Below the pieces are notes generated by a model. It saw only the letters and a list, made by a program, of their open reading frames with translations. It was not told the DNA's origin and ran no database searches. Of a stretch of 64,000 bases of DNA, positions 21,577 to 36,878 are shown piece by piece. The first letter of the stretch is position 1; each line of letters starts with the position of its first letter. The DNA is from Roseobacter denitrificans OCh 114 (GTDB lineage: Bacteria; Pseudomonadota; Alphaproteobacteria; Rhodobacterales; Rhodobacteraceae), in NCBI RefSeq assembly GCF_000014045.1, contig NC_008209.1, positions 1,325,001 to 1,389,000 on the forward strand, given 5' to 3'. Both the position numbers and the translations under genes were made by a program.

Positions 21577-21889
21577 GGGGAGCATACCTTTCAATAACAG
21601 TTTGAATAAAGCGGGAGACAGTAAGCGTTTCAGCGGTCTTTGTCTGATGACTGTCTTTCCGGACGAGCATTTATGCCATTAGCCTATCATGACGTCGGTA
21701 TACCGCAAAGCGCAGTTATGCGGCCTTGACGCACCCACAACAACGGCATATCAGACCTCCAGCAAGGCAGCCCCGGATTCGTCCGGGGCTTCGTTGTTGT
21801 TCGAAAGGACATCTAAATCGGGCACCTACGGGGGCCTTCATACCATCGCCGGGGCAACCCGGCGCATAGCAAAACGGAAGACAGACAAC
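21577..21889 (+). other. Leader region before rplB
   Basis: No gene is supported in this 313-base gap. Its main feature is the nested inverted repeat at 21737-21800, described separately. It must carry the promoter for the rplB block because the neighbour on the left is on the other strand, but I found no convincing hexamer pair. Confidence 0.4.
21737..21800 (+). promoter_or_regulatory. Nested hairpin in the rplB leader
   Basis: GCCCCGGA (21770-21777) pairs with TCCGGGGC (21782-21789) around TTCG, a very stable tetraloop hairpin. It is enclosed by ACAACAACG (21737-21745) and CGTTGTTGT (21792-21800). The T-rich right arm makes the inner hairpin look like a weak terminator 90 bases before rplB. 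Confidence 0.5.
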
Positions 21890-34642: not shown

Positions 34643-34831
34643 ATGGCTAAAACAATCGTCATCAAACAGATCGGCTCCCCGATCCGTCGCCCCGCAAAAC
34701 AGCGTGCCACGCTGATCGGTCTGGGCCTGAACAAGATGCACAAGACCCGCGAGCTGGAAGATACCCCTTCCGTGCGCGGCATGATCAACTCCATCCCGCA
34801 TATGGTGGAGATTGTCGAAGAGAAGGGTTGA
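34643..34831 (+). CDS. rpmD: 50S ribosomal protein L30
   Basis: A 62-residue L30 with [20 protein letters not shown] and [16 protein letters not shown]. It is the last gene of the third block; rplO usually follows at once, but a terminator and two foreign genes intervene. Length is normal. Confidence 0.96.
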
Positions 34832-34857
34832 CCCCCTATTTGACGTCTTGAGAATTT

Positions 34858-34893
34858 GAACCCCTCGCAGGAGACTGCGGGGGGTTTTTCGTT
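34858..34893 (+). terminator. Intrinsic terminator after rpmD
   Basis: AACCCCTCGCAG, GAGA, CTGCGGGGGGTT form a stem with one slip, followed by TTTCGTTTT. It closes the rpmC-rpmD block. Confidence 0.88.
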
Positions 34894-34967
34894 TTGTGCC
34901 GCTTTTACCGTTTAGCTGGTTGCGCTTTGCTATTAAGGGTTAAACAAAATTCTTTCAGGAGCGTCTT

Positions 34968-35243
34968 ATGCGTAAATTCAACACCCCTGGCGTGTTTCCC
35001 CTTTTGGCCGTCATGGCGTTTGCGTCTCCTGCGGCGGCGAACAGCGAAAAAACCTGCACCGAGCGCATGCCAGAAGTCCGCGCGATGGTTGATGAGATGA
35101 CGGATGCCACGGATAAGGCCTTTGCCGAAAAGCAGTTCAAGAAAATCCAACAACTCTTTGCAAGCGGACGTGAGCGCAATTGTATTCTTTATCTGGAAGC
35201 CTTGCGCGCAAACATCGAGTCCGGTGATTTCAGCGAAAGCTAG
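34968..35243 (+). CDS. Small secreted hypothetical protein
   Basis: A 91-residue protein with an N-terminal signal peptide (LLAVMAFASPAAA, cleavage likely before NSEKTC). The mature part is about 67 residues, mostly helical, with two Cys that could pair. No family is recognised. A CAGGAG site precedes the ATG by seven bases. It is inserted between the rpmD terminator and the Abi-like gene and is plausibly its own transcription unit. Confidence 0.65.
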   Translation: MRKFNTPGVFPLLAVMAFASPAAANSEKTCTERMPEVRAMVDEMTDATDKAFAEKQFKKIQQLFASGRERNCILYLEALRANIESGDFSES

Positions 35244-35341
35244 ATCGAGTCTGCTTTCGGTGCATTGAAGCAATCAAAACTCATGGCAGAAAATTGTGTG
35301 TCACTTGATGTTGACTAAACTTATCAAAAGATCAAAATGAA

Positions 35342-35364
35342 AAAGCCACCAAAACGGTGGCTTT
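35342..35364. terminator. Stem-loop upstream of the Abi-like gene
   Basis: AAAGCCACC, AAAAC, GGTGGCTTT is a perfect nine-pair hairpin flanked by A and T runs. It could terminate transcription of the small secreted gene or form the 5' stem of a structured RNA that continues to 35423. Confidence 0.6.
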
Positions 35365-35453
35365 ATCTTATAGCGTCGGGGGTCCGTCACGAACTAAGCG
35401 CGCTGCCGACCATTATCCCGACGTTTCAACTGCAAAAGTACTGTAAGGAGTGA
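35342..35453 (+). ncRNA. Candidate structured RNA upstream of the Abi-like gene
   Basis: Two helices are visible: the hairpin at 35342-35364 and a longer one formed by CGTCGGG-GGTC (35374-35384) with GACC (35408-35411) and CCCGACG (35417-35423), with an ATTAT bulge on the right arm and a 23-base apical region. It ends 30 bases before the start codon. Structured RNAs of this kind (the abiF motif) are known upstream of Abi_2-family genes, and some act as RNA antitoxins. No covariation data are available here, so the assignment is an inference. Confidence 0.35.
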
Positions 35454-36271
35454 ATGGTGTCAAGGTTTTTAACTCCAGCTGACATGCCAGAGATCGAGAA
35501 GCTGTTATCTCAGGAGCGGCTCAGTACATTTATGAATCTGACCAAAACGCGAGAAAGTGCCATAGAGTTGCATCAATCCACAATGAGTTTGGGAGTGGCG
35601 ATTTCGGCGGTCTCTGGGTTAATTGAAATCGGATTGCGCAATGCGGTTTGTCATCAGATGCTTGTGGAATTTAAGATTACGGATTGGCTTAGGAAACCCC
35701 CAGCCTCTCTGAGATGGGGTAGTTTGGAAATGTTTTCCATAAAAAAGGCAAATTCGAATGCGCAAAGAGCAGCATACTCCAAGCTGTCAGGACCGGAGAA
35801 AAGCGCCTTGGACGCTGTTGCACTTCCGAATGGGAACTATGCCAAAATTAAACATCGAAAGCTGGTGCAAAAACGGCAATCAACACTGCATGTTTTGGAA
35901 GGCCAAGTCATAGCCCAACTTACAATGCACTTTTGGAAAAGGTTGTTTTCACAAGACTATGAAAAAGTTCTCTGGAAAAGGGCTCTGAAACGGGTGTTTC
36001 CTAACAAATCAATTAGCAGAGCAAACGTTGCCGAAAAAAATTAGAAGTCATTTACCAAACGAGAAACCGGCTCGCACACCATGAACCGGTTTATGGAACG
36101 CGACTGTCTGACACGCTGGAGTCGATTGATTTTGTGCTTCAAAACTTAGGCGTCAGCCGTCCAAGTGACGAAGCTCCTCTAGCCAAGCTTATACTCCCAC
36201 AGCGCGAGATTTTAATCGGGCAAGTGGCAACATTTCAATCAACATTTATGAGGGTCACAAAGCAATCTTGA
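35454..36271 (+). pseudogene. Abi-like HEPN protein, broken by a -1 frameshift at A7
   Basis: The first frame gives 196 residues ending VAEKN at 36044. It has the Abi-like N-terminal pattern (LLSQERLSTFM, then IEIGLRNAVCHQM) and FWKRLFS further on. At the A7 tract 36034-36040 the -1 frame continues without a stop for 76 more codons to a TGA at 36269-36271 and encodes the canonical motif TRNRLAHHEPVYG (RNxxxH HEPN) and LAKLILPQREILIGQ. Joined, the protein is about 272 residues, a family-typical size. Hand counts of four 60-base lines give about 41% GC against about 60% around it, suggesting transfer. It could be a sequencing error, a true pseudogene, phase variation or programmed slippage (A-AAA-AAT). 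Family: Abi-like, likely an RNase toxin. A GTG start at 35457 is an alternative. Confidence 0.85.
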
Positions 36272-36395
36272 CCTTGATCCCTGCATACCCGTCGATTATA
36301 TGCCCACGATCACCATTTTGGTGACATAGAATCGAAACGCCGTGTTTGGTCGCTCCCGTCGCTGGGGACCACATCCGGCAAAAGGAGAAGCGACA
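36272..36395 (+). other. Leader before rplO
   Basis: Contains a short stem TCACCA-TTT-TGGTGA (36310-36324) and the AAGGAG site for rplO. A promoter is expected here because the Abi-like gene is foreign, but none is clear. Confidence 0.35.
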
Positions 36396-36878
36396 ATGAA
36401 ACTGCATGAACTTTCCGACAATGATGGTGCGGCCAAGAAACGCAAGCGCGTTGGGCGTGGTCCGGGTTCTGGCACCGGTAAAATGGGTGGCCGGGGTATC
36501 AAGGGTCAGAAATCCCGTTCGGGTGTGGCCATCAAGGGCTATGAGGGCGGCCAGATGCCGCTCTATCAACGTCTGCCAAAGCGGGGCTTCAACAAGCCGA
36601 ACCGCAAGGCCTATGCCGTTGTAAACCTTGGTCTCATCCAGAAATTCGTGGATGCGGGCAAGATCGACGCGAGCGCCGCCATCACCGAAGACGCACTAAT
36701 TGCCTCCGGCCTCGTGCGTCGCAAGAAGGACGGTATTCGCGTGCTGGCCAAGGGCGATGTGACGGGCAAACTGAACATCGAAGTCACCGGCGCATCCAAA
36801 TCCGCTATCGAAGCCGTGGCCAAAGCGGGCGGTTCCCTGACCGTTACGGCGCCCGTCGCGGAAACGTCAGAGGCGTAA
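36396..36878 (+). CDS. rplO: 50S ribosomal protein L15
   Basis: A 160-residue L15 starting [20 protein letters not shown], with the Gly-rich [20 protein letters not shown] and the C-terminal [14 protein letters not shown] region ([20 protein letters not shown]). It opens the short block rplO-secY-adk. The ATG is preceded by AAAGGAGAAG. Normal length. Confidence 0.97.

What the first reader, a model, noticed from the sequence alone, without database searches (positions are those of the whole stretch)
35454..36271. Abi-like HEPN gene in a ribosomal cluster, split by an A7 frameshift
Seen: the first frame ends at 36044 just past A7 (36034-36040), while the -1 frame goes on for 76 sense codons to a TGA and encodes TRNRLAHHEPVYG, the HEPN RNxxxH core with the HEP triplet typical of Abi-like proteins. 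The first half also has an RNAVCH, which fits the RX4H pattern. Known: Abi-like proteins are phage-defence or toxin RNases and are often mobile. Inferred: transfer into the rpmD-rplO junction (about 41% GC by hand count in four lines versus about 60% nearby). The A-AAA-AAT site is a plausible -1 slippage or phase-variation site, so the frame break may be functional.
Basis: partly seen in the sequence, partly recalled or inferred. Interest (0 to 1): 0.85.

Follow-up and report, generated by a model that had tools for sequence, protein, structure and literature searches.

The report
Broken toxin gene with divergent RNA
A bacterial self-poisoning (probable phage-defence) gene, inserted among ribosomal protein genes and cut short by a reading-frame break, still sits next to what looks like its intact RNA antidote gene, which points the opposite way and belongs to an RNA family not found in the public RNA library searched here.

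Summary
Searched apart, the two pieces match intact ~270-aa relatives; the predicted fold of one relative best matches AbiF bound to its RNA (PDB 8VZ6). The break looks like inactivation: the short form's cluster lies on 78 contigs, a -1 slip would add a residue that 46 of 46 relatives lack, and no stimulatory structure was seen.

The main thing was missed. Just upstream, on the opposite strand, lies a predicted ~95-nt structured RNA with its own promoter, whose -35 box overlaps the gene's start, and a terminator. The element occurs at 34 of 35 close relatives' loci; 18 of 25 base pairs show changes on both sides; promoter spacing is nearly fixed. In 385 alphaproteobacterial genomes, gene and strong RNA match occur in the same two (one is this genome). 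Rfam has no match. Divergent promoters also precede some more distant Abi_2 genes, including PD-T4-5-like ones.

Best reading: an AbiF-type toxin-antitoxin pair with a divergently encoded RNA antitoxin; here the toxin is broken and the RNA looks intact. Transcription and toxin binding are untested.

The parts
34643..34831 (+). rpmD (ribosomal protein L30), left flank
   Evidence: Pfam PF00327, E 2.8e-19
34858..34887 (+). terminator-like hairpin after rpmD
35251..36296 (.). cargo segment without similarity to the nearest relative's junction (different gene there)
   Evidence: blastn of window against L086: aligned up to 35250 and again from 36297
35335..35428 (-). predicted small structured RNA, transcribed away from the abi gene (ends approximate, not mapped)
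   Evidence: model R1 match 35431-35329, 81.3 bits (window was one of 31 training rows), the only match at E 0.001 or below in the genome; fold z -4.19
35458..35463 (-). -35 box TTGACA of the RNA promoter, overlapping the abi start (GTG TCA AGG)
35435..35440 (-). -10 box TACTTT (3 of 6 matches to TATAAT), 17 nt from the -35 box
   Evidence: this promoter is not listed by the stricter consensus scan
35374..35423 (-). conserved core of the RNA: closing stem 35417-35423 with 35374-35380, conserved GGCAG at 35403-35407, apical hairpin
   Evidence: alignment A4 and pair counts
35342..35364 (-). intrinsic terminator of the RNA, followed by a U tract
35311..35338 (+). weak promoter-like site (9 of 12) upstream on the gene's strand; no such site is conserved in relatives
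35454..36044 (+). first part of the Abi-like gene (196 aa; probable start GTG 35457), ends before the catalytic motif
36034..36040 (+). A7 tract, followed at once by T and TAG 36042-36044
36041..36271 (+). -1 frame remainder (76 aa) with HEPN core RNRLAH at 36062-36079
36396..36878 (+). rplO (ribosomal protein L15), right flank
   Evidence: Pfam PF00828, E 1.4e-19

Best explanation
The locus is the remnant of an AbiF-type toxin-antitoxin (abortive-infection) unit that moved into the rpmD-rplO junction. The toxin is a HEPN RNase of about 270 residues with, by fold comparison of a relative, an AbiF-like structure. Its partner is a roughly 95-nt structured RNA made from the opposite strand by its own sigma-70-type promoter, whose -35 box overlaps the toxin's start, and ended by an intrinsic terminator. 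Shown by comparison of sequences: the RNA element, its likely strand, promoter, terminator and its link to this protein family. Inferred: the RNA is transcribed, binds the toxin and holds it inactive; the toxin gene has no recognisable conserved promoter and is expressed at a low level by leakage; when phage infection stops RNA synthesis, the toxin is freed and cleaves cell RNA. In this genome the toxin frame is broken before the active site, so the unit is most likely dead as a toxin, with the RNA gene still intact in sequence.
Confidence: 0.72

Rival explanations
1. The A7 is a working switch: programmed -1 frameshifting at A_AAA_AAT, or phase variation by slippage of the tract, makes the full toxin in some cells or moments.
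For: The heptamer fits X_XXY_YYZ in the right frame with a stop directly after it. All 34 invariant residues are kept in both pieces. A7 is rare in this window, one of two such A/T runs.
Against: A -1 slip would give one residue more at the junction than 46 of 46 relatives have, inside a predicted helix. No stimulatory structure: z -1.03 and -0.40. The truncated cluster stands for 78 contigs, while the nearest longer protein listed is 75% identical; the lengths of the individual cluster members and the origins of the contigs are not shown.
Confidence: 0.12
2. The opposite-strand RNA does not bind the toxin; it represses it as an antisense RNA to the toxin's 5' leader or by transcriptional interference (type I-like).
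For: It is fully complementary to any toxin transcript that starts upstream, and its promoter sits on the toxin's start region.
Against: The predicted RNA starts at about 35428 and so does not cover the ribosome-binding site seen by eye at 35445-35450. Sequence such as GGCAG is conserved across alpha- and betaproteobacteria, which plain antisense pairing would not demand. The one AbiF RNA whose paper I could read binds its toxin (PMC12373285, abstract).
Confidence: 0.18
3. The conserved element is a leader or attenuator on the gene's own strand, like RCd22, transcribed together with the toxin.
For: RCd22 of C. difficile is on the same strand, upstream and co-transcribed (PMC12373285, section 7). 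The plus strand also folds.
Against: Promoter, U tract, UUCG loops and G-U pairs all point to the minus strand; no conserved plus-strand promoter upstream in 35 loci (mean 7.89 against 7.70 in shuffles).
Confidence: 0.05
4. The RNA is a guide or activator rather than an antitoxin, as in the Cas13 relatives of AbiF.
Against: The RNA has no variable spacer-like part next to the core; the variable parts are the apical hairpin and the terminator, both paired.
Confidence: 0.05

Closest known systems
AbiF (Abi_2) with its RNA antitoxin: RCd22-AbiF of C. difficile and PbAbiF-AbiFr (PDB 8VZ6)
   Same: HEPN toxin with C-terminal RNxxxH, similar fold by structure comparison, a small structured RNA gene next to the toxin gene.
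   Different: RCd22 lies on the toxin's strand, is co-transcribed and carries two RF03085 motifs; here the predicted RNA is divergent, has one motif copy, three helices plus terminator, and no RF03085 match. The orientation of the PbAbiF RNA gene could not be read (paper not held).
Rfam RF03085 abiF RNA
   Same: Short structured RNA linked to abiF genes. Some more distant Abi_2 loci here carry a similar GCCUCU...AUGC motif, on the strand opposite the gene.
   Different: No match in the window region even at E up to 5, nor above the gathering score in 17 loci tested.
PD-T4-5
   Same: PADLOC profile matches 8 of 8 intact relatives tested, E 1.4e-8 to 1.4e-12; PD-T4-5-like loci also show a divergent promoter followed by a terminator-like hairpin.
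   Different: The PD-T4-5-like proteins taken here score E 3.3e-52 or better; the sequence after their divergent promoter is different and R1 does not match it.
Type III toxin-antitoxin systems (ToxIN and kin)
   Same: RNA antitoxin beside an RNase toxin.
   Different: Toxin structure differs from AbiF by the account in PMC12373285 (discussion passage); tandem-repeat RNA on the toxin's strand there, single divergent RNA here.

Membership tests
AbiF / Abi_2 HEPN toxins | HEPN RNxxxH active-site motif | tested here: met
   R202, N203, H207 invariant in 46 relatives; present in the window but behind the frame break
AbiF / Abi_2 HEPN toxins | Pfam Abi_2 profile above cut-off | tested here: inconclusive
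   window pieces apart: none; 8 intact relatives: all match at E up to 0.01, 3 above the cut-off
AbiF / Abi_2 HEPN toxins | AbiF fold | tested here: met
AbiF / Abi_2 HEPN toxins | associated structured RNA gene | tested here: met
   sequence evidence only:
AbiF / Abi_2 HEPN toxins | RNase activity and toxicity | not testable with these tools
   needs bench work
RF03085 abiF RNA | covariance model match | tested here: not met
   the same tool finds RF03085 in phage S-CREM1 at 52.2 bits
RCd22-type AbiF locus | RNA on the toxin's strand, co-transcribed | tested here: not met
   strand evidence; no transcript data
Type III toxin-antitoxin | RNA inactivates the toxin by direct binding | not testable with these tools
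   needs bench work
Type III toxin-antitoxin | antitoxin made of tandem repeats upstream on the same strand | tested here: not met
   one strong R1 match per locus, opposite strand
PD-T4-5 | full-length PADLOC match | tested here: inconclusive
   relatives match about 200 of 309 positions at E 1e-8 to 1e-12; N-terminal window piece E 6e-4; whole-genome search gives no match in the own genome
Programmed -1 frameshift gene | slippery heptamer | tested here: met
   A_AAA_AAT at 36035-36041
Programmed -1 frameshift gene | downstream stimulatory structure | tested here: not met
   z -1.03 and -0.40; pseudoknots not tested

The most novel reading that the evidence does not exclude
Divergently encoded RNA antitoxins, with the RNA promoter's -35 box laid over the toxin's start region, are the standard design of proteobacterial Abi_2/HEPN systems. 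They include PD-T4-5, for which the passages I read mention no RNA partner. The toxin has no promoter of its own and is armed only when the RNA promoter falls silent, as in phage shut-off. Loci like this one keep the RNA after losing the toxin, as an antidote against incoming copies.
Probability: 0.3. Interest if true: 0.78.

Novelty: new variant of a known kind. Interest (0 to 1): 0.6.

Why it matters
If right, a family of Abi-like genes annotated as Abi family or hypothetical proteins is really a set of two-part RNA-protein systems, and the second part was easy to miss because it lies on the other strand and is not in Rfam. That changes how such genes are cloned and tested (toxin without its RNA), gives a direct test for PD-T4-5, and adds a new RNA architecture to the AbiF group described as ancestral to Cas13.

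Tried and rejected
Rejected: a second HEPN site at RNAVCH (His absent in 16 of 22 relatives); an RNA on the gene's strand (first alignment A3 and folds, then the strand evidence); a sequencing error as the cause of the break (cluster on 78 contigs; indirect, since the contigs' origins are hidden and could be repeats of few strains). Led nowhere: the Abi_2 scan of the own genome found nothing, as did Pfam and NCBIfam on the window pieces apart (bar one meaningless NCBIfam hit at E 0.21; PADLOC weak); hmmsearch against PDB sequences; Foldseek's 50 shown rows did not hold AbiF, which appeared only in the second look; the plasmid DNA search gave only the RNA core of one Rhizobium plasmid; a core pattern in viral contigs gave 0; blastn of PD-T4-5-like DNA in E. 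coli genomes gave only a 77-base flanking yicC piece in the rows listed or nothing. Of 19 viral relatives only six were searched with R1, with at most 23.5 bits. Rfam did find two other RNAs in the loci: BcKCsr7 in L010, about 170 nt from the element and not overlapping it, and int-alpA in L067. My regular expressions for other RNA classes were loose: over 44 loci one search found 8 abiF-like motifs on the minus and 0 on the plus strand, and a second motif in 13 on the minus and 1 on the plus, some of them surely chance; several motifs seen by eye were missed. The PD-T4-5 RNA alignment (7 sequences) gave no convincing shared fold, and the promoters of L166 and L172 were placed by hand. One search used 42 of the 45 distant loci (L052, L075 and L079 left out); the four PD-T4-5 plasmid loci and four other plasmid loci were my picks from 40 and 25 listed rows. 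A note says 31 loci for the promoter count; the right number is 32 evaluated and 3 not evaluated.

Literature: PMC12373285 abstract and sections 6 and 7 read, other passages seen; PMC12737573, PMC9519451, PMC9964418 and PMC10952713 passages only. The Cell 2025 AbiF-Cas13 paper and the 2017 paper that defined abiF RNA are not held, so I cannot say that divergent orientation is unpublished. In the searches I saw listings and starts of abstracts only; nothing in them states it, but apart from the papers named above I opened none.

Full report
WHAT IS THERE. The reading frame from 35454 stops at 36044 directly after an A7 tract; the -1 frame continues to 36271 and holds the HEPN core RNRLAH. The genes on either side are L30 and L15. 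The gene is 45% GC in a 58% GC window.

THE FRAME BREAK. The database cluster of the short form (representative 195 aa) stands for 3 sequences on 78 contigs, whose origins are hidden; the nearest longer protein listed is 75% identical. At the junction 46 of 46 relatives have exactly the same length, which a -1 slip would overshoot by one residue, inside a predicted helix. The RNA after the site does not fold better than shuffled sequence (z -1.03, -0.40). So inactivation is the better reading. Against it: nothing else in the gene is visibly damaged, and the site is a formally correct slippery heptamer.

THE RNA. A plasmid search with the locus hit only 51 nt upstream of the gene. The same element lies upstream of relatives. 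First read on the gene's strand, it fits better on the other strand. One search looked for a promoter on the minus strand, taking the best-scoring site with spacers of 16 to 18 nt: 32 loci (window included) could be evaluated, 3 could not. The -35 begins TTGAC in 31 of 32, the spacer is 17 nt in 28 of 32, and the -10 box lies 12 nt from the core stem in 31 of 32. The distance of GTCAA (TTGAC on the minus strand) from the start codon varies from -43 to +2 in the 30 of 34 loci where it was found, 25 of these between -6 and +2, so coding does not explain it. Against 600 other genes of the same loci, a promoter score of 9.5 or more on the minus strand near the start occurs in 25 of 35 close loci (window included), 15 of 42 distant Abi_2 loci, 5 of 7 PD-T4-5-like loci and 4 of 4 other plasmid loci, and in 2 of 600 controls; on the plus strand in 0 of these 88 abi loci and 8 of 600 controls. 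The order on the minus strand is promoter, core (closing stem, inner stem, conserved GGCAG, apical hairpin), then an intrinsic terminator. The window's own -10 box is weak, and the stricter consensus scan lists the terminator but not this promoter. Pair counts on alignment A4, which was not fitted to the structure: 93.3% of 771 cells paired, 18 of 25 pairs with changes on both sides, 0 of 500 shuffles as high on four of five measures (1 of 500 on the fifth), at most 52.6% paired when slid. On alignment A6, which is fitted to the model (34 sequences), there are 75 G-U cells against 8 A-C cells, and CUUCGG apical loops in 12 of 34 on the minus and 0 of 34 on the plus strand. Folding energy alone does not tell the strands apart (z -4.19 and -4.06).

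LINK BETWEEN RNA AND GENE. Of 489 genome loci that encode a relative, 80 were kept; 35 of these (L004-L038, tblastn E 1e-36 or better) I call close. The covariance model R1 finds 34 of 35 close loci at E below 1e-7, all on the strand opposite the gene; the exception, L037, has a gene that lacks its first part. Thirty of these loci and the window trained the model. Untrained sequences: L036 79.1, L038 62.5, L029 39.6, L018 36.5, L037 24.1 bits, L169 71.5, L168 66.1, L173 51.4. None of the 45 distant loci (L039-L083) matches at E 0.001 or below. In the own genome the window is the only match. In a draw of 385 alphaproteobacterial genomes, searched twice, the protein family (E 1e-20) is in 2, and RNA matches above 50 bits are in the same 2: this genome and G688, where RNA and gene also lie head to head. 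Weaker RNA hits occur widely (122 of 385 genomes at E up to 0.001, the two included); of 29 loci taken out (L173-L201), only the one of G688 has the gene, so these are mostly chance, the strongest being 39.7 bits in G645. Rfam: no match to the window region at gathering score, and at E up to 5 only sub-threshold hits to unrelated families; none to the relatives' element. As a control, RF03085 is found in S-CREM1.

BEYOND THIS FAMILY. The 45 distant Abi_2 loci show higher best promoter scores on the minus than on the plus strand (mean 8.87 and 7.76; shuffled 7.84). Eight loci carry an abiF-like GCCUCU...GCAUG motif by pattern, all on the minus strand. PD-T4-5-like loci, three from a phylum scan (21 of 398 genomes match the profile) and four picked from plasmids, have a divergent promoter in 5 of 7 by score and in two more placed by hand. 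Six of the seven are followed by a terminator-like hairpin in the stretch printed; L172 shows none. The original PD-T4-5 paper calls it a plasmid-borne distant relative of AbiF/D with abortive-infection behaviour (passages).

HOW IT PROBABLY WORKS. By analogy with AbiF-RCd22, where toxicity and RNA binding were shown (PMC12373285, abstract), the RNA should bind and silence the HEPN toxin. That step is inferred. The divergent layout implies that the conserved promoter serves the antidote, while no conserved promoter for the toxin was found upstream (mean 7.89 against 7.70 in shuffles, 35 loci). In this genome the toxin is cut before its active site while RNA promoter, core and terminator are in place.

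SETTING. The segment 35251-36296 is foreign to the nearest relative, which has another gene there. Thirteen of 18 same-genus loci had rpmD inside the fetched flank and have 846 to 1,435 nt between rpmD and rplO, with varied genes, some of them shared between species; in the other five rpmD lay beyond the flank. Nine loci of other genera have 20 to 117 nt, and in two more rpmD was not seen in the flank.

NOVELTY. A new variant of a known kind: the toxin is AbiF-like, the RNA family is not in Rfam 15 and is divergent. The two papers most likely to bear on this could not be read.

Noticed in passing
34832-36395 and L086-L103: The rpmD-rplO junction is a variable cargo site in this genus: the species examined carry varied, often lower-GC genes there (uracil-DNA glycosylase-like, response regulator, unknowns; some shared between species)..
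   Followed up: partly
L084:3982-4057: Orphan copy of the RNA core on Rhizobium leguminosarum TP16 plasmid pRlX5 (44.1 bits), with no Abi gene found in 8 kb and no promoter or terminator recognised by eye.
   Followed up: partly
protein P0004 (308 aa): The first ~40 residues of this metagenome protein look like the translated complement of the RNA core, so its annotated start is probably wrong and hides the RNA gene.
   Followed up: partly
L039, L042, L045, L048, L060, L062, L068, L071, L073, L076, L077, L080, L082: By eye, these distant Abi_2 loci carry an abiF-like RNA (GCCUCUGC...GCAUGCG or similar) on the strand opposite the gene, most behind a TTGACN-17-TATAAT-like promoter; not matched by RF03085 in the four tested.
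   Followed up: partly
L116, L117, L118, L165, L166, L167, L172: PD-T4-5-like genes have a divergent promoter, in six of seven followed by a terminator-like hairpin: a candidate RNA gene. L117 and L118 are near-identical in this stretch.
   Followed up: partly
L047, L056, L067, L074, L078, L081, L170, L171: A third candidate RNA class (GCCUCCCC-like motif) on the minus strand upstream of Abi_2 genes.
   Followed up: no
L037:5963-6429: A second broken locus (Paraburkholderia): the gene lacks its first ~116 residues and a weak RNA match (24.1 bits) lies at the break.
   Followed up: no
34968-35243: 91-aa ORF, secreted-looking by eye, 90% identical in the nearest relative; weak Phasin_2 hit below cut-off.
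   Followed up: no
21820-21887: L2-Alphaproteobacteria ribosomal protein leader (RF03142), 64 bits; ordinary.
   Followed up: no
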